Shown here: positions 3,743-61,442 of the stretch, in pieces
How the letters are laid out: every line of letters starts with the position of its first letter
Position numbering within the stretch: the first letter of the stretch is position 1
NCBI GenBank assembly: GCA_033398695.1
Contig: CM065819.1
Location: 8,729,501-8,793,500, forward strand
Source: Orobanche coerulescens
Taxonomy: Eukaryota > Streptophyta > Magnoliopsida > Lamiales > Orobanchaceae
Length of the DNA stretch: 64,000 bases
Direction of reading: 5' to 3'
Notes under the pieces: model-generated
What the model was told of the DNA's origin: nothing
What the model saw: the letters and a program-made list of their open reading frames with translations, nothing else
Database searches by the model: none
Made by a program: the position numbers and the translations under genes

Positions 3743-4347
3743 AGGTTGTTGAACCTACGGAGACACGTGACAGTGGATCACGGTGTCATGAGCATGAATA
3801 TTTTCAAATCAAAGTTCTTTTAAGGAAAAGTTTTATGAAAATGAATGTTGGACCGAGTCCTAAGCTTGAATAAATGTTTCCCGTATTGTAAACTGCTGAG
3901 ATATGAAACAAGATTTGGGTTAAGGCCCTAAAGTTTTTCGAAAGGTTTTGTGAATCAGGACTTGAGGTCTTAGAGGTTTTGAAAATCTAAAAATTCCCGA
4001 GATGCTAATTTTATTTTCGAATGCTTCATAGCTTATCTTCCCTTGTGAAAACCTCCCGGGAATATTTTGATACTTGATTATTATATTAGATTCACGATTA
4101 TTATTTGCTTGTTACATTTCGTATGATTTGATACTTGCACTAGTAAAACAGTGGAGTTTTACTAACCCCCGAGTAATCAGGGGGTGGATATCTGTATTGC
4201 GTCCAGGTACATGCAGATTCAAGGGAGCAGTCACAGGATTGGCACAAGAGGATGATGAGCTGCGATACTAATCATGAGTCGAGAGTTGTTTTGATTTTTG
4301 TTGTGTTGTCAGAGTTGATTTCAGTCTTCCGCTGTATTGTATTTCGA
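3743..4347 (+). mobile_element. LTR of gypsy family G, copy 2, left part
   Basis: This stretch is homologous to copy 1 from the AAGGCCCTAA segment onward. It is interrupted at 4347 by element A and continues at 13929. The exact left start of this LTR copy is not clear. The last five bases (TTCGA, 4343-4347) are the target duplication of element A. Confidence 0.6.
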
Positions 4348-4499
4348 TGTAATACCCGAGATTTCTGATATGTATTTGGGAACTTGTGATATTGTAATTG
4401 TTGCACTTTAATCTGAGTATTATTCTCCGTATCTCATAGTCCGGTGTTGTTGAGCGTATGATTTCATGAATGTGATATAAAATTGTGATTCTGCGCATG

Positions 4500-4814
4500 T
4501 AGCGCACGCTATCGGCTATGTGTAGCGTACACTAACATGGATCCATAGCGCACGCTACAAAGGAACATTAGCGCACGCTATGCGTGGTCAATATGATTGA
4601 GACGTGTGGTAGGTGAGATCAGGCCGGGGATCTTGGTCGGATTGTGTCGGGATGAACCTGGACGGCTTTCGGGAAAAGCCAAGTCAACTCCTTAGCGCAC
4701 GCTACTGGCATGTGAATAGCGCACGCTAAGTGCTGAGTACAGTGAAGTCAGTAAGACGTTAGCGCACGCTACGAGTATGGACTAGCGCGCGCTAATAACC
4801 ATTTTCTATAAATA
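4500..4814 (+). promoter_or_regulatory. Element A U3 promoter: eight TAGCGCACGCTA sites plus TATA box
   Basis: Near-palindromes of the form TAGCGYRCGCTA start at 4500, 4523, 4546, 4569, 4693, 4717, 4760 and 4783. The first four are spaced exactly 23 bp; the two later pairs are spaced 24 and 23 bp. A TATAAATA box follows at 4807-4814, 13 bases after the last site, so the array occupies the enhancer position of the LTR promoter. The 3' LTR repeats this, with its TATA at 12005-12012. The binding factor is unknown. Confidence 0.7.
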
Positions 4815-5493
4815 GGACAGCATCCTTTTCGTATTTTCAGTCTTTTCTCTTCCAACATCCGAATCCTTATACTTAGAGTATTAGTCTCTACATCCTAAAC
4901 ACTTCCTATCAGCATCCTAGCTCGTGTTGAAGATTTTAGATCATTGAGGATTGGTGTTCAAGCCTTCGACGTTGGATTGCTTCGATTTCCTCCTTGTTCT
5001 TCACTACTTTGAGGTAGGTGATTCTTCACCAATATTAGTCGTGTTCTAAAGGACGTTTGATCATGCTTATCTAGTCAGTTAGATTCGTTAATAGTCGATC
5101 ATCATGTGTTAAAAAGATATTTTCAACGTTTCGGCACTTATTCATCGTATAATCCTTTGAACCTTTTTAGTGTTGGACTCCTAAACGTATTCATGTATTT
5201 TCAAAACTGTTTATGACCAGTATGGGGAGAACATCAAGTTCTTATGTTTTGACATGATAGAATCATACGTTTGGGACATGAAATGGATTGGACTTAGGAT
5301 GTTTCTTGAAGATCAAAGATGAATTATGGTGTTGTGATGATTATACGTACCCTTGTATCTTGTAGTCGTTTAATCAATAACAAACCGTATGAGCATGATA
5401 TACACTGAGATGTCTTGTATTAACACTGAGGATTTCATGAGTTTTCATCACCTTTAGCTCAAGTTTTACCCAGTAGTGACTGCCATGCACGAT

Positions 5494-5705
5494 TAGCGCA
5501 CGCTAAGATGTATATATTAACGTGCGCTATCGGGAACGAGTAACGCGGCGCTTACGTTGGATACATAACGACGTTATATCATCGAGCACGGCAATGGTCG
5601 CTCAGAGAAGATCACAAGATACGGCTAGCGCACGCTAAACTCGGTCATTTGCGTACGTTAGCGGTAGCTTAGCGCACGTTACGTATCGTACGTTGCGCGC
5701 GCTAA
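5494..5705 (+). repeat. Second palindrome array in the element A LTR
   Basis: Further TAGCGCACGCTA-type sites occur downstream of the TATA box at 5494, 5518, 5541, 5626 and 5670, with more degenerate forms such as GCGCGCGCTAAT near 5694. The first steps are again 24 and 23 bp. This part differs unusually strongly between the two LTRs of the same element (compare 12715-12905). Confidence 0.7.
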
Positions 5706-6079
5706 TTAGTTCGAGTAATTCATTTTTAGAGCTTGCGGTCGTTAATCGGATTATTAGACGTCGCATTTACTTGAGGGGAATTCTTTATTATTTCTTAGGT
5801 CCGAGCCTTGCATAGGGGACGATCGAGGCGCGGCATACGGACGCGTGTCATTTGTTGGAGTATTTCCATTCTTGCCATTTTCGAGGCAAGTATCATATGT
5901 CGAGTTCGATTTATATTGAAACTTGAATCATGCTTGTGGTTTTGTTCATATTGTCGAATATGATATGTATTTCTGTAAATTCTCGTGGTATTCGTTGTTA
6001 ATTGTTCGTATTGATGAACATATTGAAATGCATATATGTGTGCATAATTGATTGATTTATGGTATAAATGATCCGAGGG

Positions 6080-6255
6080 GATCATGAGGATCTATGCTGA
6101 GGGCGCTGGATCGAATGTCCACCATGCGTTGGTCCGACGGGATCATCATGGGGATCTATGCTGAGGGCGCTGGATCGCTGGACGGGTTTTCCACCATGCG
6201 TTGGTTCGACGGGATCATCATGGGGATCTATACCAAGGGCGCTGGATCGCTGGAT
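6080..6255 (+). repeat. LTR minisatellite, about three copies of 61-72 bp
   Basis: GATCATCATGGGGATCTATG followed by GAGGGCGCTGGATCG and CCACCATGCGTTGGT repeats with starts near 6080, 6141 and 6213. Related two-copy versions occur in B (19397-19545) and an analogous repeat lies at the same LTR position in D. Confidence 0.8.
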
Positions 6256-6371
6256 TACCCTGTACTGTGTTGATGGAATCGTGAGGATTCGCATCGTTGG
6301 ATTCCGGTGACGGAAGTCCATTTTGCATGTTTTATGATGCACTGATGATTTATGTATTATAATACTTGTAC

Positions 6372-6401
6372 TAGCATTGTTTTGCTAACCCCTTTGGGGG
6401 T
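6372..6401 (+). other. Tandem double hairpin in the element A LTR
   Basis: TAGCA-TTGTTT-TGCTA is followed immediately by ACCCC-TTT-GGGGGT. The same structure is at 13570-13599 in the 3' LTR. It lies downstream of the promoter and so should be transcribed. Confidence 0.6.
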
Positions 6402-6669
6402 GGACATTGTTTTGATGTTCAGGTAGCCGAGGAGCGGGGAAGCAACCACGCATCAAGCAGAGACGATGAAATGGCTCAGTGATGTGGTTGATGTTTATTG
6501 TTATTGTGATTTGTCTTCTTGGTTCATTTAGTACTCGAGTACGTCTGTTTTAATAATGTTATTTCGATATGGTTGTATAAGTTAACTCATTTGATCGGTT
6601 GAATCATATCTGTATTTGAACTTCAGTTGTACGATTGGATTATATTTACAATTCTTTTAAATTAGCCTT

Positions 6670-6694
6670 GTAAATCCTTACTTAAAGGGTTTAC
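6670..6694 (+). other. Terminal hairpin near the element A LTR 3' end
   Basis: GTAAATCC (6670-6677) pairs with GGGTTTAC (6687-6694), with one G-T wobble. ACGGCGCTGTAAT and the LTR end follow. Homologous hairpins with different paired bases are in B (20004-20028), G (3681-3705), D (41838-41859) and C (41091-41113). Confidence 0.55.
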
Positions 6695-6737
6695 GGCGCT
6701 GTAATTATTCCGAATATCTCGGGGTGTTACAGAATAT

Positions 6738-11533: not shown

Positions 11534-11545
11534 AGGGAGGAAGGA
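11534..11545 (+). other. Polypurine tract, element A
   Basis: AGGGAGGAAGGA directly abuts the 3' LTR, as needed for plus-strand priming. The conserved TTTCGGGACGAAACT stretch of these elements lies just upstream. Confidence 0.85.
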
Positions 11546-13928
11546 TGTAATACCCGAGATTTCTGATATGTATTTGGGAACTTGTGATATTGTAATTGTT
11601 GCACTTTAATCTGAGTATTATTCTCCGTATCTCATAGTCCGGTGTTGTTGAGCATATGATTTCATGAATGTGATATAAAATTGTGATTCTGCGCATGTAG
11701 CGCACGCTATCGGCTATGTGTAGCGTACGCTAAGATGGATCCATAGCGCACGCTACAAAGGAACATTAGTGCACGCTATGCGTGGTCAATATGATTGAGA
11801 CGTGTGGTAGGTGAGATCAGGCCGGGGATCTTGGTCGGATTGTGTCGGGATGAACCTGGACGGCTTTCGGGAAAAGCCAAGTCAACTCCTTAGCACACGC
11901 TACTGGCATGTGAATAGCGCATGCTAAGTGCTGAGTACAGTGAAGTCAGTAAGATGTTAGCGCACGCTACGAGTATGGACTAGCGCGCGCTAATAACCAT
12001 TTTCTATAAATAGGACAGCATCCTTTTCGTATTTTCAGTCTTTTCTCTTCCAACATCCGAATCCTTATACTTAGAGTATTACTCTCTACATCCTAAACAC
12101 TTCCTATCAGCATCCTAGCTCGTGTTGAAGATTGTAGATCATTGAGGATTGGTGTTCAAGCCTTCGACGTTGGATTGCTTCGATTTCCTCCTTGTTCTTC
12201 ACTACTTTGAGGTAGGTGATTCTTCACTAATATTAGTAGTGTTCTAGAGGACGTTTTGTCATGCTTATCTAGTCAGTTAGATTCGTTAATAGTCGATCAT
12301 CATGTGTTAAAAGGATATTTTCGATGTTTCGGCACTTATTCATCGTATAATCCTTTGAACCTTTTTAGTGTTGGACTCCTAAACGTATTCATGTATCTTC
12401 AAAACTGTTTATGACCAGTATGGGGAGAACATCAAGTTCTTATGTTTTGACATGATAGAATCATACGTTTGGGACATGAAATGGATTGGACTTAGGATGT
12501 TTCTTGAAGATCAAAGATGAATTATGGTGTTGTGATGATTATACGTACCCTTGTATCTTGTAGTCGTTTAATCAATAACAAACCGTATGAGCATAATATA
12601 CACTGATATGGCTTGTATTAACATTGAGGATTTCATGAGTTTTCATCACCTTTAGCTCAAGTTTTACCCAGTAGTGACTGCCATGCACGATTAGCGCACG
12701 CTAAGATGTATATATTAACGTGCGCTATCGGGAACGAGTAACGTGCGCTACGTTGGATACGTAACGTACGTTATATCATCGAGCACGATACCGGCATTGC
12801 TCAGAAGATCACAAGGCTAATAGCGACGCTAAACACGGTCATTTGCGTGCGTTAGGCAGGCTTAGCGCACGTTACGTATAGTACGTAGCGCGCGCTAAGT
12901 AGTTCAGGCAGAATTCATTTTTAGAGCTTGCGGTCGTTAACTGGATTATTAGACGTTCGTACGACTTGAGGGGAATTCTTTATTATTTCTTAGGTCCGAG
13001 CCTTGCATAGGGGACGATCGAGGGGCGGCGGCATACGGACGCGTGTCATTTGTTGGAGTATTTCCATTCTTGCCATTTTCGAGGCAAGTATCATATGTCG
13101 AGTTCGATTTATATTGAAACTTGAATCATGCTTGTGGTTTTGTTCATATTGTCGAATATGATTTGTATTTCTGTAAATTCTCGTGGTATTCGTTGTTAAT
13201 TGTTCGTATTGATGAACATATTGAAATGCATATATGTGTGCATAATTGATTGATTTATGGTATAAATGATCCGAGGGGATCATGAGGATCTATGCTGAGG
13301 GCGCTGGATCGAATGTCCACCATGCGTTGGTCCGACGGGATCATCATGGGGATCTATGCTGAGGGCGCTGGATCGCTGGACGGGTTTTCCACCATGCGTT
13401 GGTTCGACGGGATCATCATGGGGATCTATACCAAGGGCGCTGGATCGCTGGATTACCCTGTACTGTGTTGATGGAATCGTGAGGATTCGCATCGTTGGAT
13501 TCTGGTGACGGAAGTCCGTTTTGCATGTTTTATGATGCACTGATGATTTATGTATTATGATACTTGTACTAGCATTGTTTTGCTAACCCCTTTGGGGGTG
13601 GACATTGTTTTGATGTTCAGGTAGCCGAGGAGCGGGGAAGCAACCACAGTACCGACAAAACGATGAAATGGCTCAGTGATGTGGTTGATGTTTATTGTTA
13701 TTCTGATTTGTCTTCTTGGTTCATTTAGTACTCGAGTACGTCTGTTTTAATAATGTCATTTCGATATGGTTGTATAAGTTAACTCATTTGATCGGTTGAA
13801 TCAAATCTGTATTTGAACTTCAGTTGTACGATTGGATTATATTTACAATTCTTTTAAATTAGCCTTGTAAATCCTTACTTAAAGGGTTTACGACGCTGTA
13901 ATTATTCCGAATATCTTGGGGTGTTACA
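11546..13928 (+). repeat. Element A 3' LTR (2383 bp)
   Basis: Nearly identical to 4348-6731, with the same promoter array (TATA 12005-12012), minisatellite and hairpins. Differences are concentrated at 12715-12905 (second palindrome array) and 13645-13667. Confidence 0.95.
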
Positions 13929-14613: not shown

Positions 14614-16246
14614 TGATAAGTGTCAGTTTTATACACTTATCCATGGTTTGTATCGATAAATTTCACCCATAATTGTGCTAGTCTACTCGTTTTTTGCTTT
14701 TAATTAATTAGTTTTTAATAATTTTATTTTTATCGGATGATGATGTAAATCTAGTCTTAATCGGATTGAATTACTGATTTATTCAAGAAATAACATGTTT
14801 ATAAAATATTCACTTTGTTGAATTTTTATGTATTCATGTTGTAGGGCTTTCCGAGACGAGTTCGGCAGTCTTTCCGGATTCAAAATCAGAGTTATATATC
14901 AAAAGTTATCATCCGAAGAAGATTTGGGGCAAAAACGCAAAGTCTGAGAAAATCTGGGCATAAAATGAAGTCTGAAACTCTATACGGGCGTAACATCATA
15001 ACATACGGGCGTAACTCACAAGACATAAAGCCGTAGCCTACTTACGGCCGTAACTCATGTATATTACGGCCGTAAGTCATCCAAGTTACGGCCGTAACTC
15101 CTGACTGTTACGGCCGTAACTCTTGGCAGATTGTGATCATTTGTATAATTTTTTATACTTTTGGTCTATTATTGAGGGGATGGCTGGCATTGATCCGATC
15201 TAATGTAATAATGCTGGAGTTTTGGAGCTATTAGATGACTTTAGGTGTATAAATAGACCCCTTAGATCCTTCATCATTCATCATTCATCTTATAATTTTT
15301 CCACTTTTTGTAATATTTTCTTTTTGTGTGAAGAACACACTTGTGTTCTTGAGTGATTTGTGTTAGTGTGGTATAGCATATGTTGTTCAGAGAGTTTATT
15401 GCTCCTTTCTCCTTTATCTACTAAGGGAGTTAGGATCAATTCTGTCTCTTGTTCAACTAATAATGACCACTCAAACTTGTATTATGTATATTAAACCCTT
15501 CATGGGCTAAGTTACCTTAGTTGGGATTATAAACAAGGTTAGTCACGTTATTTAAGTTTGTATAAAGATCTATTGTGAATTACTTATTATTGTGTGTGAT
15601 TTTCATTATTTTAACAATCTTTATTTATTTGGCCAATAAATAACGATATTTATGGTCTTCATATGTTTCGAAAGAAAATATGTTTGATTAGATCAAATGA
15701 TCTTCACTCTAAGTTGTTCTAGGGGATAGAAATATACCTCTAGACCTTAGATGATTCTTTGAGTTATTTTCATAAATCCTAATGCTATGTATTGAAGCCA
15801 ATCAACATAGAAATATAGTGGATTGATTCAATATATAAGGGGCGTTTTATAGTTCGAAAGAGAAACCGTCTTTTTAAGGAAAATCGAATCTACACAACAT
15901 AATAAGTAAATTCATCTTATGATCTCCTATACATCTTCTATAACTAATGACGAACTAAGTTTGTAATCCCAACTATTTCATTTTATCATTAATCAATCTA
16001 TTATTGTTGCAATCTTTTTATTTCCTTAAAATATTAGAACTATTATTGCATTTTCTTTGCAATTATTAAACCAAACTCTTTAATTGTGTGTTTCACTCAT
16101 ATTAGTATCTATAAAAATAAACTAATAGTGTATAATTATAATTATAACCAAACTTCCTCGTGGGATCGATAAACCGGACTCAAAAAGTCCACTTACTACT
16201 TGATACGATATCGTGCACTTGCGATAGTTACACTAAGAACGTGTCA
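14614..16246 (+). repeat. Tat-like LTR (5' or solo)
   Basis: It starts TGATAAGTGTCAG (or at TGTCAG, 14621) and ends GTGTCA, followed at once by a spacer and the tRNA-Asp primer site, which fixes its 3' boundary. It contains a promoter with TATAAATA at 15248-15255 and a four-copy palindrome array. No second copy is in the window, so LTR divergence cannot be estimated. Confidence 0.75.
14982..15255 (+). promoter_or_regulatory. Tat-like LTR promoter: TTACGGCCGTAA array at exact 22-bp period, plus TATA
   Basis: Four perfect 12-bp palindromes TTACGGCCGTAA start at 15042, 15064, 15086 and 15108, each separated by a non-conserved 10-bp spacer. Two imperfect copies (ATACGGGCGTAA) precede at 14982 and 15003. 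A TATAAATA box follows at 15248-15255. Confidence 0.7.
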
Positions 16247-16252
16247 AGTTTT

Positions 16253-16270
16253 TGGCGCCGTTGCCGGGGA
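16253..16270 (+). other. Primer binding site, tRNA-Asp
   Basis: TGGCGCCGTTGCCGGGGA is the 18-base complement of the plant tRNA-Asp 3' end and is characteristic of the Tat/Athila lineages. It sits six bases after the LTR end. Confidence 0.9.
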
Positions 16271-16477: not shown

Positions 16478-17101
16478 ATGGAAGAAACTTTGAATAAAAT
16501 TGACAAAAGATTTCCCTTTCTAGGCAAAAATGTCATTTTAAAAATTTACAAGGCAAGGCTTGAAAGGATGAGGTTGCTTATGAATAAAAGCATACCTTTT
16601 GATATTCGATTCATAATTGAAGCCAAAATAAGAATAGCAGGTGAATTCACAGAAACACCAACTAGATTTTTACCAGGGCTTGGAAAAAGTTCATATGCCA
16701 AGAAATGACGAGCAAAGATGATAGCCGTTTGCTATAAATGTGCTAGATGGAACTGTAATTTAAAATGTCGGTCTTTAGGAATTCCATCTACAAACAGAGA
16801 AGATAAAATTCAATTCATTAAGGATGGTCTGAATAAAGAGAATCCAGATAATATCGAAATTTCTCTTGACACGCATCCTAGTGGACTCATACATTACAGA
16901 ATTCGATGTTTGTGGAATAAATTCAAACCAGAATATGAACAACGTCTTGGGAATCTGACGTTAAAAGATCCTGTTTGCCAATTTGTAAGAAAATTGGATG
17001 GTAAGCTTCTCCCCGACTCATTGAAGGCGTTTAGGCCGTTTCTGAACGTAAAATCAGAGGAAGATGTGAGCCACAATCACAACTACTGTACATACATGTG
17101 A
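16478..17101 (+). pseudogene. Small basic Cys-cluster protein, one in-frame stop; function unknown
   Basis: One frame from the ATG at 16478 to 17101 is split by a TGA at 16706-16708. The first 76 codons are Lys/Arg-rich and end in a basic patch (KSSYAKK). Just after the stop is a compact cysteine cluster, CYKCARWNCNLKC, then a GIPSTN...FIKDGL segment and about 85 further residues with no known motif. A basic patch directly before a Cys cluster, followed by a G-I-x-x-N...F-I-x-x-G pattern, recalls the cysteine-rich nucleic-acid-binding proteins of betaflexiviruses. The Cys spacing (CX2CX4CX3C) does not match them, so this is only a weak lead. It sits between the tRNA-Asp primer site and the LOG-like ORF, where gag would normally be. 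Confidence 0.4.
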
Positions 17102-17331: not shown

Positions 17332-17693
17332 ATGGAGTCATCATCTTCAACAAAAAAATTTAGCACAGTGTGCATTTTTGGTGGAGCTAGTTATGTAAAA
17401 GAGGCTTGCTTTACTGAAGCAGCCCACAACTTGGGGCGTACCTTAGGAGAAAAATGCATTCATGTAGTTTACGGAGGAGGAAGTCTAGGATTAATGGGAC
17501 GAGCTGCTGCTTCTGCCTATATGGAAGGAGTAAGAGTGTTGGGAATAATTCCAAAATCTCTGGCTGAAAGTAAAATCACCGGGGCAACTATTGGAGATGA
17601 GTTTAGATCTGTAAATATGCAAGATCGCATAACTCACATGATAAATAATTCTGGCACCTTTATCACCCTTCCCGGTGGTTTTGGCACTATTGA
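17332..17693 (+). pseudogene. LOG-like cytokinin riboside 5'-monophosphate phosphoribohydrolase, N-terminal part
   Basis: LOG enzymes release active cytokinin bases from their nucleotide precursors in the cytosol. Residues 1-120 include a Rossmann-type start (TVCIFGGAS, where typical LOGs have CVFCGS), YGGGSLGLMG at 47-56 and PGGFGTI at 114-120. Arg99 matches the catalytic Arg position, but the Lys that normally follows it is Ile (QDRI rather than HQRK). No intron interrupts the frame, whereas plant LOG genes usually have several. Element B is inserted after the Ile120 codon, within ATT-GA|G. The rest continues at 27370. Together the two parts give about 209 residues, the family's normal length, with no other break. 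A retrocopy or retrotransposon-captured gene is likely. Confidence 0.85.
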
Positions 17694-17848
17694 TGTAATA
17701 TCCGGATTTATTACGGTGTATTTCATCTGTATTCAAACCCTGTATTATTCGGATTTGTGGTTTTGATTATTGGAGTATGATATTTCTTGCATTGATATCA
17801 TTGTACATAAGTATAGAAACATGCAAAATTTCTCATGCAAACTCATGA

Positions 17849-18101
17849 TAGCGCACGCTAAGAATGTATCTTAACGCGCGCTATCGGGCTACTATTAGCG
17901 CACGCTATGCAGATAGGAGTTGCGTGCGCTAAGATCTCAATTGTTGAGTGGGACGGCTAGCACATGCGCCAGCCGAGACATGGGTCCGGATAAGATTCCC
18001 GCGGACGAGCCCGGACAATTCTGAAGTCAACCATTATTAGCGCACGCTAAGGAATGCTTAGTAGCGTGTGCTAACTTGTTAAAATGCAGAATATTATAAA
18101 T
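17849..18101 (+). promoter_or_regulatory. Element B U3 promoter: palindrome array plus TATA
   Basis: TAGCGCACGCTA-type sites start at 17849, 17872, 17896 and 17920 (steps 23, 24, 24) and at 18038 and 18062 (step 24). TATAAAT is at 18095-18101. The 3' LTR copy has its TATA at 25399-25405. Confidence 0.7.
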
Positions 18102-18927
18102 GGGACAACAACCGTTTTGGCTTTCATTTCTTTCGCCAATTCTTCATCCTTGAGAGTTCAGAGAGCTGAAATAATCCTCCTACACACTTAGAACACATCT
18201 TGTTGGTGTTTGTATATTGGTTATCACTTGGGAGTAACCATTGAAGTGGAATAGCACCTTGGAGTGGCATACAACCAACCGGAGTTGGATTCTACCTTAC
18301 AGTTTAGTGATTTTCACTATATTAAGGTATGTTCAATCTATCTCCAGACTTAGAGTTGGATTCTAACGATTTGGATGATCATGTTAACGAGATATGGATT
18401 TTCATAGATGAATTATCCAAAGTATATCATGTTTGGAATATTGAGATGATTAAGCCTTAAGTACCTTGATTATGATCATCATGATTCGAATCTTATTACA
18501 TTGAACAAAGTAAAGGAAGCTTCTATCATTGGTAAATCCGAATCTAGTAGATGACTTCATAACAATCATGGACTTGACCTTAACATCATTATTGTTAGAT
18601 AAATCTAAGGGATTGATCATGGAAGGATTTATCTAGTATAGATGGAATGTTAAACAACTTCAGCATGATAATATTGATTGATGTAAAGGTGTTGATATCA
18701 ACCGTTAAGCCTTTCGAATTATCGTATGAAGATTTGTAGTCGAAATGGAATATGGTTTTATATGGTATGCATATCCTTGAATCGGAAGTTGTTGTTATCT
18801 GTAAAAATCATTCATCAGAGTATGAACATGATATTCATGGAGGTAACATGAATTATCACGGAAGATTTCATTGTTTTGATCATAATGAGAACGGTTTACT
18901 GCCCAGCAGTAAACTGCCATGCATAGA

Positions 18928-19142
18928 TAGCGCATGCTAAGCTATTAATATTTAACGTGCGCTATCGAGCACGAGTTAGCGTACGCTACGTTTGGTACGT
19001 AACGTACGCTAGGCCATCGAGCAGTCGATCGGCGATCGGTGAAATCTTGACCATACATAGTTAGCGTACGCTAGGCTTTGTTGTTTGCGTGCGCTATCGA
19101 GCAGACTTAACGCACGCTACACAGAGTACTTAGCGTGCGCTA
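18928..19142 (+). repeat. Second palindrome array in the element B LTR
   Basis: Sites TAGCGCATGCTA (18928), TAACGTGCGCTA (18953), TAGCGTACGCTA (18977) and TAACGTACGCTA (19000) step by 25, 24 and 23 bp, with further copies to TAGCGTGCGCTA ending at 19142. It lies about 850 bp downstream of the TATA box. Confidence 0.7.
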
Positions 19143-19682
19143 AGCAGTTCAGGCAGATTGCATTTTATGAACTTTTGGCTGTAAACCGAATTGTTAAACA
19201 TTCGTAAGACGTGAGATAAATCCTATATCATTTCTTTTGTTAAGGTTTGGTCTCGTTACGTGATTGATTGAGGAGGACGACCTTCGAGTGTTCATATTCG
19301 TGGAAGTGTTGTTCTTGTCTTCAAATCGAGGCAAGTACTTTATTTGTTTTATGTATTGATGTTATACATATTGTCGTGCATGTATGTCGTTGTTGAATGT
19401 CCACCTCGTGTTGGTCCGACGGGATCATCGGGGGATCTATGCTAGCGTGCGCTGGATCATCGGACGGGTTTTTTCACCACGGGTTGGTCTGACGGGATCA
19501 TCGTGGGTTCTAGGCAGTGAACGCTGGATCGACGGAATTACCATGTGTATGTTATGATATCATGTTGTGATTATCAGTTGTGCATGTCATTCTTGAGTTT
19601 CTCGTAGGAGAAGACTCGTTGGTATTTTTCTTGTCGTTTACGTTATTCGTGAGATATGAATAATATGTTGTGGTACTTGTAC

Positions 19683-19712
19683 TAGCATCGTTGTGCTAAC
19701 CCCTTCGGGGGT
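19683..19712 (+). other. Tandem double hairpin in the element B LTR
   Basis: TAGCA-TCGTTG-TGCTA followed by ACCCC-TTC-GGGGGT; the second loop is a TTC instead of the TTT of element A. The 3' LTR copy is at 26989-27018. Confidence 0.6.
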
Positions 19713-20003
19713 GAACATTTTGTTTATGTTCAGGATCCAGGAGAGCGGGAAAACAGCCACTGGAGCTGCATGACGACGAGGGTGCAGAGTGATGTTTCGG
19801 CCGGGTTTATTTATCTGTGTTTATTCGTTATTTCAATAAGTACTCGAGTACGAAGTCATTTGTGATGGATTTGAATTTAGTGATGTGTTATTGAGTTCCT
19901 GTTGAACAATTGTACTTTCAGTATTTGGTAAGAACTGTTGTATCTTAAATCCGTTATTTCCATTCGTTAGTACCCTTTAATGTCTGTTCAATTCTTCAGC
20001 CTT

Positions 20004-20028
20004 GTAAATCCTTATGTAAAGGATTTAC
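20004..20028 (+). other. Terminal hairpin of the element B LTR
   Basis: GTAAATCC (20004-20011) pairs perfectly with GGATTTAC (20021-20028). ACGGCGCTGTAATATTCC and the LTR end follow. Confidence 0.55.
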
Positions 20029-20071
20029 GGCGCTGTAATATTCCTGAATATATCGGGGGTGTTACAGAATA

Positions 20072-24985: not shown

Positions 24986-24997
24986 AGTAGGAGAGTA
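24986..24997 (+). other. Polypurine tract, element B
   Basis: AGTAGGAGAGTA abuts the 3' LTR start; it has two T interruptions and is less pure than in element A. Confidence 0.7.
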
Positions 24998-27364
24998 TGT
25001 AATATCCGGATTTATTACGGTGTATTTCATCTGTCTTCAAACCCTGTATTATTCGGATTTGTGTTTTTGATTATTGGAGTATGATATTTCTTGCATTGAT
25101 ATCATTGTACATAAGTATAGAAACATGCAAAATTTCTCATGCAAACTCATGATAGCGCACGCTAAGAATGTATCTTAACGCGCGCTATCGGGCTACTATT
25201 AGCGCACGCTATGCAGATAGGAGTTGCGTGCGCTAAGATCTCAATTGTTGAGCGGGACGGCTAGCACATGTGCCAGCCGGGACATGGGTCCGGATAAGAT
25301 TCCCGCGGACGAGCCCAGACAATTCTGAAGTCAACCATTATTAGCGCACGCTAAGGAATGCTTAGTAGCGTGCGCTAACTTGTTAAAATGCAGAATATTA
25401 TAAATGGGACAACAACCGTTTTGGCTTTCATTTCTTTCGCCCATTCTTCATCCTTGAGAGTTCAGAGAGCTGAAATAATCCTCCTACACACTTAGAACAC
25501 ATCTTGTTGGTGTTTGTATATTGGTTATCACTTGGGAGTAACCAATGAAGTGGAATAGCACATTGGAGTGGCATACAACCAACCAGAGTTGGATTCTACC
25601 TTACGGTTCAGTGATTTTCACTATATTAAGGTATGTTCAATCTATCTCCAGACTTAGAGTTGGATTCTAACGATTTGGATGATCATGTTAACGAGATATG
25701 GATTTTCATAGATGAATTATCCAAAGTATATCATGTTTGGAATATTGAGATGATTAAGCCTTAAGTACCTTGATTATGATCATCATGATTCGAATCTTAT
25801 TACATTGAACAAAGTAAAGGAAGCTTCTATCATTGGTAAATCCGAATCTAGTAGATGACTTCATAACAATCATGGACTTGACTTTAACATCATTATTGTT
25901 AGATAAATCTAAGGGATTGATCATGGAAGGATTTATCTAGTATAGATGGAATGTTAAACAACTTCAGCATGATAATATTGATTGATGTAAAGGTGTTGAT
26001 ATCAACCGTTAAGCCTTTCGAATTATTGTATGAAGATTTGTAGTCGAAATGGAATATGGTTTTATATGGTATGCATATCCTTGAATCCGAAGTTGTTGTT
26101 ATCCATAAAAATCATTCATAAGAGTATGAACATGATATTCATGGAGGTAACATAAATTATCACGGAAGATTTCATTGTTTTGATCATGATGAGAACAGTT
26201 TACTGCCCAGCAGTAAACTGCCATGCATAGATAGCGCACGCTAAGCTATTAATATTTAACGTGCGCTATCGAGCACGAGTTAGCGTACGCTACGTTTGGT
26301 ACGTAACGTACGCTAGGCCATCAGACGAGTCAGTCGACTGATCAGTGAAGTACTGACCATACATAGTTAGCGTACGCTAGGCTTTGTTGTTTGCGTGCGC
26401 TATCGAGCAGACTTAACGCACGCTACACAGAGTACTTAGCGTGCGCTAAGCAGTTCAGGCAGATTGCATTTTATGAACTTTTGGTCGTAAATCGAATTGT
26501 TAAACATTCGTACGACGTGAGATAAATCCTATATCATTTCTTTTGTTAAGGTTTGGTCTCGTTACATGATTGATTGAGGAGGACGACCTTCGAGTGTTCA
26601 TATTCGTGGAAGTGTTGTTCTTGTCTTCAAATCGAGGCAAGTACTTTATTTGTTTTATGTATTGATGTTATACATATTGTCGTGCATGTATGTCGTTGTT
26701 GAATGTCCACCTCGTGTTGGTCCGACGGGATCATCGGGGGATCTATGCTAGCGTGCGCTGGATCATCGGACGGGTTTTTCCACCACGGGTTGGTCTGACG
26801 GGATCATCGTGGGTTCTAGGCAGTGAATGCTGGATCGACGGAATTACCATGTGTATGTTATGATATCATGTTGTGATTATCAGTTGTGCATGTCATTCTT
26901 GAGTTTCTCGTAGGAGAAGACTCGTTGGTATTTTTCTTGTCGTTTACGTTATTCGTGAGATATGAATAATATGTTGTGGTACTTGTACTAGCATCGTTGT
27001 GCTAACCCCTTCGGGGGTGAACATTTTGTTTATGTTCAGGATCCAGGAGCGGAAAACAACCACCTGGAGCCGCATGACGACGAGGGTGCAGTGATGTTTC
27101 GGGTTTATTTATCTGTGTTTATTCGTTATTTCAATAAGTACTCGAGTACGAAGTCATTTGTGATGGATTTGAATTTAGTGATGTGTTATTGAGTTCCTGT
27201 TGAACAATTGTACTTTCAGTATTTGGTAAGAACTGTTGTATCTTAAATCCGTTATTTCCATTCGTTAGTACCCTTTAATGTCTGTTCAATTCTCCAGCCT
27301 TGTAAATCCTTATGTAAAGGATTTACGGCGCTGTAATATTCCTGAATATATCGGGGGTGTTACA
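24998..27364 (+). repeat. Element B 3' LTR (2367 bp)
   Basis: It matches the 5' LTR closely. Clusters of small differences lie at 26315-26355 (second palindrome array) and 27035-27105. Confidence 0.95.
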
Positions 27365-27369
27365 ATTGA

Positions 27370-27637
27370 GGAACTTTTTCATTTGGTTACCAGAGCCCAG
27401 CTAAATGTTCAGCAAAAACCAATAGGCCTGCTTAATGTCAATGGTTTCTTTGATGGTTTACTATCTTTCATCGACTACTCTGCTGAAAAAAGTTTTATTT
27501 CCGAGCGTGCTAAACGAATCATAGTCGTTGCAACAACACCAGAAGAACTAATCAAAAAACTCAATGAATTTGTTCCTCAACCAGATCCAGCTCTAGCTAA
27601 AATTGTCTGGATGGAAGATTTTACCATGAGAAAATGA
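27370..27637 (+). pseudogene. LOG-like phosphoribohydrolase, C-terminal part
   Basis: It resumes directly after the duplicated ATTGA with the Glu-Glu pair of the PGGxGTxEE motif (residues 121-122; the first Glu is the catalytic residue in characterised LOGs). The remaining 89 residues match the LOG C-terminal half: the LVTRAQL helix, KPIGLLNVNGFFDGLL, SFIDYSAE and ISERAKRIIVVATTPEELI, ending at a TGA. The frame is intact, so the insertion appears to be the only disabling change. A product from this part alone would lack the nucleotide-binding half. Confidence 0.85.
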
Positions 27638-28561
27638 AAAGTGGATTCATTCCTCTCCCTTTGATAACCCATGTCGGACCTCTTGTATTTTTACTTTCTG
27701 TCATGTGTAATAATCGTGCTAAATGGTGGCAGCTTAAGGAGTTTCTTCTTGATCTCTTGATGCGCATCTATTCGCGATTTATGTATTATTTTATTGCTGT
27801 AATTTTTATTGTTTGTTTTTTTTAATAAAAGCATTGATGACAGCGTAAGGTGACTCTTCGGACTTTCTTGAAGCGCATCTTAAAAATTGTGTTATACTTC
27901 CGAGTATATTTTATTTTCTTTTGTTATTTGCTTAGTATATTTATTCTCTTGCAGATTCTAAATGGCGTTAGCACAAGCATCAACTTTCATTTCAGGGGGT
28001 TTTCTGTTTTCTCACTTGATTTTCATTTCTAAAAACTGAGGACAGTTTTAGTTTCAAGTTTGGGGGTGTTTTGGAACTTGTTTGTTTATTTGGTTTGTTT
28101 TTGAACTATGATTTTTATTTTACTTTGAATCATATGATTGTGGTATGTTTTGATTATTGTAGTGTGTGGTGTGTATTTATTATTTGGCATTGATTTTTGT
28201 TTTTTTAGGTTTAGTGTTTATATATATATATATATATATTATTTTGATTTGTGAGATTTCTAGATCTGACCATAACACCAATAAGTTAGCTATATTCAAG
28301 CTTCTAAAATCGTTTTAAATCGGTTAAAAAATTGTATATTCCAAAATTTTTTGAGCCTTAATATCTCTTTCCAAGCCTTGTAGTTATCATATAAAATCGA
28401 GTCATTCGTTACCGTGAGAAAAGAAGAATCAGTCGGTTGATGAAAAATAGAACTGAAATTTATTTAATTTGTGGAGTTTTGGATTTTTCATGCTTAACTA
28501 ATAAATGATTTTCTGCAAAAATCCTATTCCCAAAAAAATGCTGGAAAAAAAAGGAGTCATT
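27638..28561 (+). other. 3' tail of the Tat-like unit with G-rich tract
   Basis: The tail is T-rich and non-coding. The GAGGACAGTTTTAG...AAGTTTGGGGGTG segment (28036-28067) resembles the sequence preceding the 3' untranslated region in Tat/Athila-type elements; TTTGGGGGTG at 28059-28068 could serve as a purine-rich priming tract. A (TA)n run lies at about 28219-28240. The open frames at 27634-27825 and 27850-28032 are hydrophobic by base composition only. Confidence 0.5.
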
Positions 28562-28857
28562 GGTGAAAAGAGCTACACGTTAGCAAATAACGGTGTGAAA
28601 GCTATCACCTAAAAAAAATGACAAAAAGGAGAAGTGTTGAGCAGCAACAGCTGCCTAATTTTGGGGGTCTTAAAATTGTGCGAAAAATAAAGGACTAACC
28701 ATTGTTGGTGCATAGCTGCCGTCTCACAGAAAAATTGGTGAAAAGAGCTACACGTTAGCAAATAACGGTGTGAAAGCTATCACCTTTTCAAAAAGCTAGA
28801 AATTGTGTTGGTGAGAAGAGCTACAAGTTAGCAAATAACGGTGTGAAAGCTATCACT
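28562..28857 (+). repeat. Three dispersed copies of a 48-bp repeat with inverted ends
   Basis: Copies at 28562-28609, 28737-28784 and 28810-28857. Each starts GGTGAAAAGAGCTACACG and ends AAAGCTATCACC, so GGTGA/TCACC and AGCT/AGCT can pair as an imperfect hairpin. The first two copies are identical; the third has three changes. Confidence 0.85.
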
Positions 28858-28929
28858 AAGGGATGTAGTTTATGAGCAGATCTGAATTAATTAGCGGCTG
28901 AATTTCAATACACTCAATTTCGTGAAAAA

Positions 28930-30556: not shown

Positions 30557-30573
30557 AAAAAGAGTGCAGTAAA

Positions 30574-38406: not shown

Positions 38407-41146
38407 TGTAATATCCGACAGTAATTTCTTATCTACTGTTGTATTATTCGGATAATTTGAGTATCGTTGTAATCATGTTACATTTAGTTAATATTTATTG
38501 ATATCGAGATATATAAGAATAGACTTGGTTATAACTCTCATTCGCATTGTGGTTGATTTCTTGACGTTGTGTAGATTGTTACATTTTTAGGCTAGATTTT
38601 CCGTGTTTAACGTACGCTAAGGCTTTAACCTAACGTATGCTAATTCATTAGCTTTACATACGTAATGGAAAGCTTGTTAGGCACGTAATTCTTGGAATCT
38701 TATCTGATCTCACTTTCGGCCTGGGGGGCCGGACCTGATCTAGATAAATGGCCTTTTCGAGGCAGCCAAGTTGACATATATTACGTACGTAATGCTGAAG
38801 CCATAACACACATAATGATGATGGTGTTTTGAGGCAGTAGCCTATGGAGGCAGATTACGTACGTAACATTTCCGGCATAGCGTACACAAAGGGGTTAATG
38901 TACGTTATCTTCATGTGGTAACGTACGTAACGAGTTGTGCAGTTTATAAAAAGACAGTTGTGTCTTTCATTTGCACGTCCAAACTACGATTTTTCTCTCC
39001 AACAATTGTCTCTATGCCTTACTAGACCGACCTTACTCCCTTCCAACTTGTGTTTGAGCCTTGCATTTGGGATTGGAGCTTGTTGATTGGAAGTTTAGAG
39101 TTGTTCTTGAAGCTTGGAGTGTATTCTTGTGGTTTTGGTGATTTGTTCTTCGTTTTCGAAGGTATGTTGTGCGATTCTACTCTATATTTTCGTAGTTATG
39201 ATGTTAGTGATATGGTATGCTACACCTAGTGTTGAATTAATCAAGTAAAACATGTTTGTAGTTAAGCTTTTTAACACTTATTGATGAATGTGGTAATTAA
39301 GGGTTTGGAATGAAGATATTCTTATGTTTTAATGGTAATGATCATGTTTATAAGAATCATACTCTTCTTGCTGGACTATTAACATCATTAGGATAATAAT
39401 AATCATTAGCTTCTTCGTAGTTAAGTTTGATTGATAGAATTGTTGTCATAAAATGTATTAGAACACCTTGATGAATGTTAGAAGATTAGAGTGATGTTAT
39501 TGATCCTAAGCTAGGTGAATTCATAGATGATGATAGTTGATTCTCCAAGTTAGTAAGGGGTTGTAAGGATGGTGTTAATATGAGATAATCTTCATGATTA
39601 TGATATGGTCTTGTAACTAAATGAATTTAGTATAACCTTATTGTAGCTTACTATATTCAATCTAAATTTGATGTAGTGATGGAACAAGGCTGTGCAGATT
39701 ATCACTTTCAAACATTAGTGATGTTCTTGGAAAGTTTGAATGATATAAGATGATATTAACGAACATACATGATTTTTTAACATGTTCTTGATAAATTCTT
39801 ATTCATAAGAACCATTTGAATATTTGGGAATATCTTGTATACCGATCATAAGAATGAATTGAGGTAAATAGATTTCTTGGAATATAATTTTGATATCTTG
39901 AGATATTTGAACTATTCAAATTGAATTTAGGGTGTCGTCTCACTGAATTTGATATCTATGATTATATGGATGTGTTATTGAGTGAAATATATTTCATTCA
40001 AGGTTGATTGTTTGAGTAACCGATATTAGTCGAGGACTGTCCGTTCATTCGACAAAGGAGGATTATTATCGTCTCCGTATTGAGGCAAGTTATCTTGCTT
40101 GGTTATAATGATGATTGAATTCTTGTGATGGTTATACGTTTCATGTATATTAAACACTTATGAATCTGTGATTCGTAGTTCGATATTGTTCTTGATGATG
40201 TTCCGTTTTCACCATGGGATTGCATTCCCAAGTTCATCACTTTTGAATCGTTGATCGCATTGATCCTCATTGTCACTTCGGTGAGTTTATTGATCCTTAA
40301 TTGGATATGTGATTTATTGAATTCGTTGTCATGTTGTATCGTGACATATTTGGAATCATATCTGCGTACCGATTGGTTATTGTGAGGCTTTTTAGCCAGA
40401 CACATATATAGTCATACGTGGATGTTTCCATATTAGACTGTGCACACGAGACATAGTCCGTGAGGCTAATTAGGTACATTGTCACACATATATTCTGGAT
40501 TCCGTATACGGGGTGGACATGTACACATATACATTTCCGGATCGGGCGTACTGTGATGTCCATTTTGAGCCTTATTGTTTGATTGTTCATAGTCCATGTA
40601 TGATTGGATATGTTTGACGGTTTGTGACTGATTGTTCATATGCCCGAGGGGTATGTTCAATAGTCGGGATGTTTTTTTTGAGGTCTATTATATGTGAATT
40701 GTATAATGTCTGGAGAATCATTTATCATGTATATCTGACCATGTGGTTCGGGCGAAATACTTGTGCTGTATTTTAGGTCGAGGCAAAGGCAAGGCATGGG
40801 AAGAGCATGGTGATGGCGAAGGGTTCGAAGGATACTAGTTCGGGGGTCCCAAGTCTTTTATTGTCCGGTTATGTTCAAACTGTGTAATGTTATTTTTCCG
40901 CTTCATTTAAACTATTGTCCGATTATGTTATTATTTGAAGTATATTCCATCTCCATATGGTTTATACTTGTATTTGGATCCTGTGTACGTTAAGGTCATT
41001 GGCCATACTATTTATAAACTCGTAATCGGAGTAATGAATATTTATTGTGGTTCGGTATCACACAGTTAATCTATATTTTGGTATCGCCTGGTGGGTCCCA
41101 GTGTGGGGTCCACGACACTGTAATAGCCATATTTTGGGGTGTTACA
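38407..41146 (+). repeat. Element C 3' LTR (2740 bp)
   Basis: It starts TGTAATATCCGAC and ends GGGGTGTTACA. It carries the full promoter region that the 5' copy lacks, and a terminal hairpin at 41091-41113 formed by GTGGGTCC and GGGTCCAC with G-U wobbles. Confidence 0.92.
38608..38951 (+). promoter_or_regulatory. Element C U3 promoter: ACGTACGT-type palindromes in 23-bp steps, plus TATA
   Basis: Sites start at 38608, 38631 and 38654 (steps 23, 23), then in pairs 38781/38804, 38855/38878 and 38896/38919, each 23 bp apart. The consensus is TTACGTACGTAA with variants such as TAACGTACGCTA. TATAAAA follows at 38945-38951. Confidence 0.65.
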
Positions 41147-43205: not shown

Positions 43206-43469
43206 AGTTATAGGTTGACTTCTTTGTGTGCCGCGGCCCAGCCGAAGTGTGCCGCGGCACAGGGCCAAAAATTGCGCCCAGTGATCGGCAGACCGCTCTG
43301 TGTGCCGCGGCCCAGCAGAAGTGTGCCGCGGCATAGGGCCAAAACTGCGCCCAGTGACTCGGCAGTGTGCCGCGGCCCTACCGGCATGTGCCGTGGCACA
43401 CGGTACAGACTACTCGTCCAGAAACTGGACAATGTGTGTGCCGCGGCGCACATTACTTGGGCCGCGGCT
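43206..43469 (-). promoter_or_regulatory. Element D U3 promoter: four 21-bp-spaced pairs of GTGCCGCGGCAC, plus TATA-like box
   Basis: Eight TGTGCCGCGGCACA-type sites start (plus-strand coordinates) at 43227/43248, 43301/43322, 43366/43387 and 43437/43458, every pair exactly 21 bp apart. On the minus strand a TATAA-like box (CCTATAACTG, 43207-43216) lies just downstream of the array. The 5' LTR copy shows the same pairs, for example 60704/60725 and 60778/60799. Confidence 0.7.
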
Positions 43470-43970
43470 CACAACCCCCTTGGGTCCCAAAATGATGAAA
43501 AAAGATCCGGGAAGAGAATAAAAGCAATAAGAATCGATATTTGGGAAACAATAACACGAAATGGAAGTACAGAAACCCCAAAACGGTCCGAGGTACACAA
43601 CCAAAATCGAACAAGGAACAAATTCCCTAAACTTATAGGAAATTACAAAAACGGCCCAAACATCCGAAAATCACGATACAATGTCGGATTAACAATCCGA
43701 AACTCACAACACGCTCTACTCAACCATACGAACTCATGGAAATAGGAAAATGATGAAGTCAAACGAGTTTAACGAGAATCGAATACACAAGCGATAAAAT
43801 ATAACTCAAGATGAAATTACGTAAAAACATCGTCGAGACTCATCCCAACGGAGAAACTCCAAGAACAAAATAGATTCAGAATTCCAAAACAGTGCCAAGC
43901 GATTTGTCCGAAACGAATATACACTGAAAATAGAAATTACCAAAAATAGAAAACACGGATATCACATTAT

Positions 43971-59278: not shown

Positions 59279-61442
59279 TGTAACACCCCAATTCACAAAT
59301 GGGACATTACACGCCGTAGAACCCCCGTGAGGTCTACCAGGCTAACTCATGACTCGTAAACCACAAATATATCCCAAAAGGTGCATTCAAAAAGTAAATA
59401 AGGTTGTGGCCCTGGCCAAAACATTTTAACGGAGTACATGAATCATATGTTAAATACCAATTCATCGCCCACGCAGGGGACTTAAACCAAGTTGAAAAAT
59501 AGACAATCTAACTTCAATACTCGACAAATGCAATGCCAAAACATAAAAATACAGACTCGAGCCACATCATCATGCCAGCCCATCCTTTGTGTGCGCGTCC
59601 CATGCCTGCTCCTCAGCCCTCCCGGTACCTGAAATGCATAAGACGCATTTCCCCCATTTAAGGGGTTAGCATTCGAATAGATAGTGCAAGTACACAATTA
59701 CACAACATTATATACATACACGATTCAACGCAAACAAATCATTAGGAAAAGTCATTTTAAAAATCAATATTCCAGAATATCACATTTACACCAAAACAAT
59801 ATATCATCAAGCTTTCCACATCACAATTATCCACGTTCGGTAACTCGCGACCGTACCCATTAGTATCGGCCCCCAAAGGTCCCGTCGGACCGTCCCCAGG
59901 TGAGAAACCACTTACGCGGCTGTACCCATTAGTATCGGCCCCCAGAGGTCCCGTCGAACCGTCCCCAGGTGGAAGAACATCAACGCACGCACCCAAGTCC
60001 ACTTCCGTGGCCGTACCCATTAGTATCGGCCCCCAGAGGCCCCATGCCATCCCCAGGTGGAAGAGTAACCATCACAATCGTTCAATAAACCAGTTTACAT
60101 CATTCGCATCAAAACCGTACACACATAATGAAATATAATACATGTACTTGCCTTGGATAATACGACGCGAAGGAAACGACGAAGGAATAGGTTTCGGTCC
60201 GACCAATCCTCTCAAATCCGACCCTAACACAATAATGATATACAACCAATCTCAACATCCTGAATACGAAGAAATTCATCCTAGTTCTACCCGTTGGGAT
60301 AATTCATCGAACAACACGAGTGCATAGGGAGTTGAAATCGGTCAACGGTGTAATAACGGGATTTCATCCCATCCAATAACAAGGGAATCAAGGATCACGA
60401 TTAAACTATCGAAATCTAACAAGAACTTCGGTTAAATCGGATTAAAAGGCAAGATTACCACCAAACCCTCCCCAAATTCATACTAGGGTTATAGGAGATC
60501 TTACCTTGATTCAAAGCCGAACAATAGATAATTTGGTGTTGTGGTGATGATATGATGCTAAGTTATACTTCCCAAACGGTGTTTGGATGAAAATCTGATG
60601 AACCCTCGCCTTGGAAATCGCCCCGACGCGAAGAAGAGAAGAGGAATGAGAAAATGAGTGAATTTCAATGGAAGAAAAACACAGTTATAGGTTGACTGCT
60701 TTGTGTGCCGCGGCCCAGCCGAAGTGTGCCGCGGCTCAGGGCCAAAAATTGCGCCCAGTGATCGGCAGACTGCTCTGTGTGCCGCGGCCCAGCAGAAGTG
60801 TGCCGCGGCACAGGGCCAAAACTGCACCAAGTGACTCGGCCGTGTGCCGGGGCCCTGTCGGCATGTTCCGCGGCACACGGTACAGACTACTCGGCCAGAA
60901 ATTGGACAATGTGTGTGCCGCGGCGCACATTCATTGTGCCGCGGCTCATAACCCCCTTGGGTCCCAAAATGATGAAAAAAGATCCGAGAAGAGAATAAAA
61001 GCAATAGGAATCGATATTTGGGAAACAATAACACGAAATGGAAGTACGGAAACCCAAAATGGTCCGAGGTACACAACCAAAATCGAACAAGGAACAAATT
61101 CCCTAAACTTATAGGAAATTAGAAAAACGTCCCAAACATCCGAAAATCACGATACAACGTCGGATTAACAATTCGAAACTCACAACACGCTATACTCAAC
61201 CATACCAACTCATGGAAATAGGAAAATGACGAAGTCGAACGAGTTTAATGAGAATCGAATACACAAGCAATAAAATATAACTCAAGATGAAATTACGTAA
61301 AAACATCGTCGAGACTCATCCCAACGGAGAAACTCCAAGAACAAAATAGATTCAGAATTCCAAAAAAGTGCCAAGCGAGTTGTCCGAAACGAATATACAC
61401 TGAAAATAGAAATTACCAAAAATAGAAAACACGGATATTACA
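59279..61442 (-). repeat. Element D 5' LTR (2164 bp)
   Basis: Near copy of 41801-43966 with the palindrome array at about 60704-60945 and minisatellite at about 59850-60050. Confidence 0.95.

What the first reader, a model, noticed from the sequence alone, without database searches (positions are those of the whole stretch)
14982..15119. Perfect palindrome TTACGGCCGTAA at an exact 22-bp period in a Tat-like LTR promoter
Four identical 12-bp palindromes start at 15042, 15064, 15086 and 15108. The 10-bp spacers are not conserved, so the motif and its phase are what is maintained. Twenty-two bp is about two turns of B-DNA, which places all sites on one face. The array lies 130-210 bp upstream of the TATA box. 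It is the cleanest case of a pattern seen in five LTR families here with different palindromes but 21-24 bp spacing. Inference: cooperative binding sites for a dimeric host or element factor, or a chromatin or methylation target.
Basis: partly seen in the sequence, partly recalled or inferred. Interest (0 to 1): 0.9.

Follow-up and report, generated by a model that had tools for sequence, protein, structure and literature searches.

The report
Palindrome promoter code in plant retrotransposons
In one stretch of plant DNA, five families of retrotransposons carry short mirror-image DNA sites repeated about every 21 to 24 bases, in four of them ending just before a TATA-box-like sequence; they are likely landing sites for a paired host protein that would switch the elements on, much like boxes described earlier in another group of plant retrotransposons.

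Summary
Four perfect TTACGGCCGTAA sites lie at exactly 22 bp (15042-15119), with two decayed copies upstream, in the LTR (about 14614-16246) of an element with no gag-pol seen. In an unsupervised scan, all 25 similar-dyad pairs closer than 43 bp fall at 21-24 bp; shuffles give 0.38 pairs in all.

The strongest evidence is not this array, whose spacers still show tandem duplication, but its neighbours. In families A, B and C spacers are unrelated while palindrome and step persist. Between related families A and B aligned palindrome columns are 83-90% identical, against 47-66% for the rest. Arrays end 12, 21, 14 and 15 bp before a TATA-like box in A, B, C and D. One consensus, TWRCGNNCGYWA, covers this family and A-C (62 matches, 0.42 expected, 61 in LTRs); D uses another palindrome, E has none.

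Best reading: promoter-proximal sites for a dimeric host factor, resembling the palindromic 'RM boxes' of Sirevirus (Ty1/copia) LTRs, here in Ty3/gypsy elements: a new variant of a known kind. 'Same helical face' is only approximate. RNA hairpins remain a live rival. No copy of these arrays outside the window could be obtained.

The parts
14614..16246 (+). LTR that carries the array (boundaries estimated from TG...CA ends and the PBS; calls used 14614-16248; no second LTR of this family in the window)
   Evidence: sequence; no second copy found by self-comparison
14982..15014 (+). two degenerate copies ATACGGGCGTAA, 21 bp apart
15042..15119 (+). four perfect palindromes TTACGGCCGTAA at 22-bp steps
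15248..15255 (+). canonical TATA box TATAAATA, 128 bp after the array
16250..16270 (+). primer-binding-site-like sequence TTTTGGCGCCGTTGCCGGGGA, which I recall as tRNA-Asp type (not tested)
   Evidence: sequence; identity recalled
16478..17098 (+). first ORF, split by one in-frame stop at 16706; neither piece matches Pfam, but relatives of the second piece match PF01623/PF05515 (carlavirus-type nucleic-acid-binding protein)
17332..17693 (+). N-terminal part of an intronless LONELY GUY-like ORF (PF03641) in the internal region
27365..27637 (+). C-terminal part of the LOG-like ORF, separated by the insertion of element B
4500..4794 (+). family A 5' LTR (4346-6731), promoter array of TAGCGYRCGCTA, 8 copies, ends 12 bp before TATA
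5494..5704 (+). family A 5' LTR, second array downstream of TATA
11698..11992 (+). family A 3' LTR (11544-13928), promoter array
12692..12897 (+). family A 3' LTR, second array
17849..18073 (+). family B 5' LTR (17693-20066), promoter array of 6 copies, ends 21 bp before TATA
18928..19142 (+). family B 5' LTR, second array of 8 copies
25153..25377 (+). family B 3' LTR (24997-27364), promoter array
26232..26448 (+). family B 3' LTR, second array
38608..38930 (+). family C 3' LTR (start estimated, about 38470), array of TTACGTACGTAA-like sites, ends 14 bp before TATA; the copy at 38631 was added by eye
43228..43470 (-). family D LTR (41801-43966), array of GTGCCGCGGCAC-type sites in four pairs 21 bp apart, ends 15 bp before a weaker TATA
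60705..60947 (-). family D other LTR (59279-61442), same array

Best explanation
The 15042-15119 array is likely a promoter-proximal activator region: repeated sites predicted to bind a dimeric host DNA-binding protein side by side, about two helical turns apart, upstream of the LTR's TATA box. Shown: the sites, their 20-25 bp steps, their near-exclusive place in LTRs, their closeness to a TATA-like box in four of five families, their conservation between families A and B, and one consensus TWRCGNNCGYWA shared by this element and families A-C. Inferred: that a protein reads them, that it is a host factor, that it works as a dimer or stacked dimers, and that it activates transcription. The steps (21 in D, 22 here, mostly 23-24 in A-C) suggest tolerance in rotational placement, so close packing of neighbouring dimers probably matters as much as helical face. 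The shared half-site TWRCG/CGYWA in two retrotransposon groups suggests one host factor or factor family used by both; D would use another.
For: Unsupervised scan: 74 similar-dyad pairs within 120 bp against 0.38 in 60 shuffles; 25 of 25 pairs closer than 43 bp are at 21-24 bp. TWRCGNNCGYWA: 62 matches against 0.42 expected, 61 of 62 in LTRs, which make up 40% of the window; 36 of 40 steps of 60 bp or less are 20-25 bp. TWRCG is already spelled by A, B and C alone, so this element matches out of sample; a random palindrome would do so about 1 time in 256 (my arithmetic, equal base frequencies). Flank identity in A, B, C is 0.24-0.32 against 0.26 by composition. A versus B: aligned palindrome columns 83-90% identical, remaining columns 47-66%. 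Array end to TATA-like box: 12, 21, 14, 15 bp in A, B, C, D. Gaps between groups are in phase with 10.4-10.5 bp, p about 0.018. Precedent: Sirevirus palindromic boxes upstream of TATA (PMC2829016, sections 9 and 19 and passages read).
Against: This array keeps duplicated spacers (0.53 against 0.27) and lies 128 bp from its canonical TATA, unlike the others; D's spacers are also partly alike (0.33-0.37 against 0.25). The two arms of a copy do not co-vary: re-pairing arms at random gives equal or better symmetry in A, B and this family, and in C the observed value is higher but within chance (p=0.30), so strict palindromy is not seen to be selected copy by copy. In the first A/B cluster 34 of 96 of A's palindrome columns fall in gaps. 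A and B carry a second array about 690-830 bp downstream of TATA, where a promoter role is less obvious. Steps of 23-24 bp rotate neighbours by 69-103 degrees. No binding, expression or methylation data; A and B are homologous, so independent cases are few (3 or 4). The consensus was written after seeing the data.
Confidence: 0.58

Rival explanations
1. Structured-RNA or silencing reading: neighbouring palindromes pair with each other into hairpins in the element's RNA, acting as a packaging or regulatory RNA structure, or as a source of small RNAs, as proposed for the clustered palindromes of maize Sireviruses.
For: The 7 array stretches folded do better than shuffles (this one z -7.5, the others -2.1 to -4.8; an LTR control -0.9). 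Arms of neighbouring copies match each other slightly better than the two arms of one copy in A, B and this family (5.00 v 4.73, 5.20 v 4.71, 5.50 v 5.33 of 6). With spacers shuffled, 2 of 13 groups pass 0.05 and 3 more lie at 0.057-0.073. Runs of copies come in twos and fours. Sirevirus palindrome clusters attract small RNAs (Bousios 2016, known to me here only through passages of PMC10760457).
Against: Any palindrome array folds well. With palindromes kept and spacers shuffled, 8 of 13 groups are above 0.1, and with copies permuted only 1 of 13 (D) passes 0.05. Neighbour pairing is not better in C (4.62 v 4.67, 6 of its 8 listed copies used). Hairpins do not require 21-24 bp steps or a place 12-21 bp before TATA.
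Confidence: 0.22
2. Leftover of tandem duplication: a 22-bp unit was duplicated by slippage and the palindrome is just its best-kept part, without function.
For: TRF calls a 22-bp, 3.7-copy repeat, and the 3' flanks of the four perfect copies are still 0.53 identical.
Against: In A, B and C flanks are unrelated but step and palindrome persist; palindromes outlast flanks between A and B; four other families show arrays beside a TATA-like box.
Confidence: 0.12
3. Element-encoded factor: the Cys-rich protein encoded by this element's first ORF family (related to carlavirus proteins, one of which acts as a nuclear transcriptional activator) binds its own LTR array, as VANC proteins bind motif arrays in VANDAL transposons.
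For: Most of 16 aligned relatives of that ORF keep a Cys-rich stretch after a basic one, and 3 of 5 scanned pass the curated cut-off of PF01623 and PF05515. Chrysanthemum virus B p12 is stated to be a nuclear transcriptional activator (PMC7588395, abstract and passages). VANC precedent: PMC5735166 passages.
Against: Families A-C share the consensus; no such ORF was noticed in them, but they were not searched for it. In this copy the ORF is split by a stop, and its two pieces match no Pfam family. No binding data.
Confidence: 0.05
4. Methylation or chromatin target: the CpG-rich boxes act as a CpG island or as a mark for silencing.
For: CpG observed/expected 1.67 in this array against 0.77 in the rest of the LTR; also higher in C, in B's first array and in the second arrays of A and B.
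Against: After insertion CpGs decay alike inside and outside palindromes (12 of 164, 64 of 603, p=0.24); ratio not raised in A's first array or in D.
Confidence: 0.03

Closest known systems
Sirevirus RM boxes (Bousios et al. 2010, PMC2829016)
   Same: Many copies of a CpG-containing palindrome, sequence differing between elements, clustered in the LTR upstream of a TATA box; this family even has the CGG-CCG core.
   Different: Sireviruses are Ty1/copia; the elements here are Ty3/gypsy. A-C lack CGG-CCG and share TWRCGNNCGYWA. No 21-24 bp step appeared in the sections and passages I read. No env-side boxes were looked for here.
Maize Sirevirus palindromes and small RNAs (Bousios et al. 2016; paper not held, seen only as cited in PMC10760457)
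   Same: Palindrome clusters in the LTR cis-region that fold strongly.
   Different: No small-RNA data here; the spacer-shuffle test favours a folding role in only 2 of 13 groups.
VANC-binding motif arrays of VANDAL transposons (PMC5735166)
   Same: Short motifs, reiterated in noncoding DNA, different between related elements.
   Different: Those are DNA transposons with a known element-encoded binder; the word 'palindrom' does not occur in that paper's main text.
Tnt1 repeated boxes in the LTR (recalled; symmetry of box I mentioned in PMC2829016)
   Same: Repeated, partly symmetric activator boxes in an LTR promoter.
   Different: Ty1/copia, different sequence; no comparison run.

Membership tests
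Sirevirus RM boxes | palindrome with dyad symmetry, repeated in the LTR | tested here: met
Sirevirus RM boxes | CGG-CCG core signature | tested here: inconclusive
   met by this family (CGGCCG); not met by A, B, C (mostly CGYRCG) nor D (CCGCGG)
Sirevirus RM boxes | at least 8 copies per element | tested here: inconclusive
   6 copies in the one LTR here (4 perfect); 15 listed in A's 3' LTR, 14 in B's 5' LTR, 8 in C and 8 in D
Sirevirus RM boxes | short distance upstream of a TATA box | tested here: met
   12-21 bp in A-D; 128 bp (or 24 bp to a weak box) here
Sirevirus RM boxes | carried by a Sirevirus (Ty1/copia) element | tested here: not met
   RT-RNaseH-integrase order in B, and RNaseH before integrase in A and D, as in Ty3/gypsy; for C only RT was matched, its pol resembles A's. 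This element has no pol in the window; its relative L001 has an integrase beside the same ORF
Ty3/gypsy Tat/Athila clade element | tRNA-Asp-type PBS after the LTR | tested here: inconclusive
   sequence seen; the tRNA assignment is recalled
Ty3/gypsy Tat/Athila clade element | gag-pol between two LTRs | tested here: not met
   no gag-pol seen beside inserted element B, and no second LTR in the window; sequence from 16364 on aligns to the post-integrase part of L001, so this copy looks like a deleted derivative
VANC-type anti-silencing system | element-encoded protein binds the motif | not testable with these tools
   no binding data

The most novel reading that the evidence does not exclude
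Unrelated Ty3/gypsy lineages in one plant genome use a common promoter code, TWRCGNNCGYWA dimers stacked about every two turns beside TATA, read by a single factor that gates retrotransposon activity; in this element's lineage that factor may be encoded by the retrotransposon itself, as a captured virus-type zinc-finger activator.
Probability: 0.12. Interest if true: 0.85.

Novelty: new variant of a known kind. Interest (0 to 1): 0.56.

Why it matters
What switches on plant Ty3/gypsy elements, which often dominate plant genomes, is poorly known (general knowledge, not searched here). A motif and spacing rule that recurs beside TATA in several LTR families gives a direct test: scan LTR libraries for TWRCGNNCGYWA at 21-24 bp steps, then pull down the protein. 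If one factor reads several lineages, it would be a shared control point for retrotransposon bursts and a source of ready-made enhancers for nearby genes.

Tried and rejected
Other copies of the LTR: the genome search 'own' was tried 13 times with the same request and never answered. Array patterns found nothing in viral contigs or genome contigs; family B's pol found no relative in viral contigs; the ORF1 family found none in viral contigs and one plant-like contig in genome contigs, L001, without an LTR that I could see. Protein search with an ORF that runs through family D's array: 56 candidates, 0 at E<=0.001.

Literature (all in one open-access library; subscription papers mostly missing): six motif strings gave 4 papers, unrelated by their listing. 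Palindrome/Ty3/Athila/LTR/TATA/CpG gave 10 papers, the Sirevirus paper first; of the other nine I looked only at passages of PMC6911290, which concern insertion sites, not LTR promoters. DAP-seq terms gave 0. Broader searches were seen as listings apart from the papers cited. So I found no report of palindrome arrays in Ty3/gypsy LTRs, which is not proof of absence. For ORF1: Pfam-name terms with 'retrotransposon' gave 0; carlavirus plus retrotransposon terms gave 200 papers, 12 listed, none opened.

Rejected or weakened: strict same-face claim, CpG protection, and RNA hairpin as sole cause, for reasons in the report.

Full report
What is there. The four perfect palindromes TTACGGCCGTAA at 15042, 15064, 15086 and 15108 are real, with two copies at two mismatches at 14982 and 15003. 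They lie in an LTR that I place at about 14614-16246 from its TG...CA ends and the primer-binding-site-like sequence after it. No second LTR of this family is in the window. A canonical TATAAATA is 128 bp after the array; a weaker TATAATT is 24 bp after it.

More than chance. I scanned the whole window for 12-mers with at least 5 of 6 dyad pairs and at least 4 G/C, and counted pairs of similar ones within 120 bp. There are 74 pairs; dinucleotide shuffles of 500-bp blocks give 0.38 on average, at most 2 in 60 shuffles. Of the 74, 25 are closer than 43 bp and all 25 are at 21-24 bp. They lie in this LTR and in those of families A, B and D; family C was picked up with its own consensus, and one C copy (38631) falls outside the 3-mismatch rule and was added by eye. 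Family E has no array at either threshold tried.

Not just tandem repeats. In this array the flank 3' of the palindromes is 0.53 identical between the four perfect copies (0.39 with all six) against 0.27 by composition, so slippage is a fair account of its exact period. D's flanks are also partly alike (0.33-0.37 against 0.25). In A, B and C the flanks are at 0.24-0.32 against 0.26, while the palindromes are at 0.77-0.83 and the step persists. A and B have related LTRs; aligned columns of palindromes called in one family are 83-90% identical in the other, the rest of the same stretches 47-66%. In the first cluster 34 of 96 of A's palindrome columns fall in gaps and the alignment is weak outside the palindromes, so an aligner could slide units there; the second cluster, at 65-66% elsewhere and without gaps in palindromes, is the safer comparison.

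Shared motif. A, B and C alone spell T-W-R-C-G / C-G-Y-W-A half-sites; this family's palindrome fits them. TWRCGNNCGYWA has 62 matches in the window against 0.42 in shuffles; 61 of 62 are in LTRs, which cover 40% of the window, and 36 of 40 steps of 60 bp or less are 20-25 bp. Family D uses GTGCCGCGGCAC, in pairs 21 bp apart. The consensus was written after seeing the data. I could not name the factor; no motif library was at hand.

Position. The arrays end 12, 21, 14 and 15 bp before a TATA-like box in A, B, C and D (D's box is a weaker match). A and B have a second array about 690-830 bp downstream of TATA, which a simple promoter role does not explain.

Spacing. Short steps in my copy lists average 22.75 bp, range 20-25. 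With a 10.5-bp helix, 21 is in phase; 22, 23 and 24 are 34, 69 and 103 degrees off. Eleven irregular gaps between groups favour multiples of 10.4-10.5 bp (p about 0.018; about 0.015 if two D gaps are dropped). For this list I left out an 81-bp gap in A's 3' LTR, where a copy is damaged, and used B's 62-bp gap once for both families; with the 81-bp gap kept and 12 gaps the fixed-period test at 10.5 gave p about 0.011. I tried ten periods there. I call this suggestive only.

RNA rival. The arrays fold strongly. When palindromes are kept and spacers shuffled, 2 of 13 groups beat the null at 0.05 (A's last group and D), 3 more lie at 0.057-0.073 and 8 are above 0.1; when copies are permuted, 1 of 13 (D) does. 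Neighbouring copies complement each other slightly better than the two arms of one copy in three of four families tested. Runs of two or more copies are of size 2 or 4 in 17 of 17 cases by my count (one LTR per family), but one of these (A, second cluster) needs an 11-base variant at 12821 to reach four, one (C) includes the copy added by eye, and C has two single copies. This keeps the hairpin rival alive.

After insertion. Between the two LTRs of A, B and D, CpGs change at 12 of 164 sites inside palindromes and 64 of 603 outside (p=0.24), other sites at 7 of 292 and 119 of 5850. The inserted copies thus decay as methylated DNA would; any constraint would act on active source copies.

The element. 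After the PBS, the sequence from 16364 on aligns (71% over 779 columns) to L001, where the same region follows a retroviral-type integrase. So this copy appears to lack gag-pol. Its first ORF, split by a stop at 16706, belongs to a plant family (147 of 152 candidates at E<=0.001, best three Orobanche minor, searched with the second piece only). Of five relatives scanned, three pass the curated cut-offs of the carlavirus nucleic-acid-binding families and two fall short; the window's own pieces match none. It is followed by an intronless LONELY GUY-like ORF into which element B has inserted, with a 5-bp ATTGA duplication. A LOG-type (YgdH) domain in LTR retrotransposons of Citrus and poplar is reported (PMC9289625, passages). 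I call the element Tat/Athila-like from its PBS and relatives, partly from recall.

Known kind. Sirevirus LTRs carry palindromic RM boxes upstream of TATA (PMC2829016), which the authors call Sirevirus-specific relative to classic retrotransposons. The present arrays are the same kind of thing in another superfamily, with a different core in families A-D and a narrow step. I therefore call it a new variant of a known kind.

Noticed in passing
16478-17098 (+): ORF split by one stop whose relatives (Orobanche, Populus, Acer, Xanthoceras, Parasponia among others) resemble carlavirus nucleic-acid-binding proteins; in L001 it sits just after a retrotransposon integrase.
   Followed up: partly
17332-17693 and 27365-27637 (+): Intronless LONELY GUY (cytokinin-activating enzyme) ORF inside the retrotransposon, interrupted by element B with a 5-bp ATTGA duplication; a TATAAA lies at 17245, upstream of its ATG.
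   Followed up: partly
5494-5704, 12692-12897, 18928-19142, 26232-26448: Second palindrome array in families A and B about 690-830 bp downstream of the TATA box.
   Followed up: partly
about 28855-32110: Probable CACTA-type transposon on the minus strand (ends judged by eye; transposase-associated domain PF13963 at 28933-29664), with a LINE-type zf-RVT fragment (29936-30433); it seems to interrupt the retrotransposon.
   Followed up: no
28559-28856: Three copies of a roughly 50-70 bp sequence with inverted ends (GGTGAAAAGAGCTAC...GAAAGCTATCACC) in the internal region.
   Followed up: no
L001: A contig filed in a Candidatus Nomurabacteria MAG encodes a plant-type retrotransposon integrase: likely plant contamination of the bin.
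   Followed up: no
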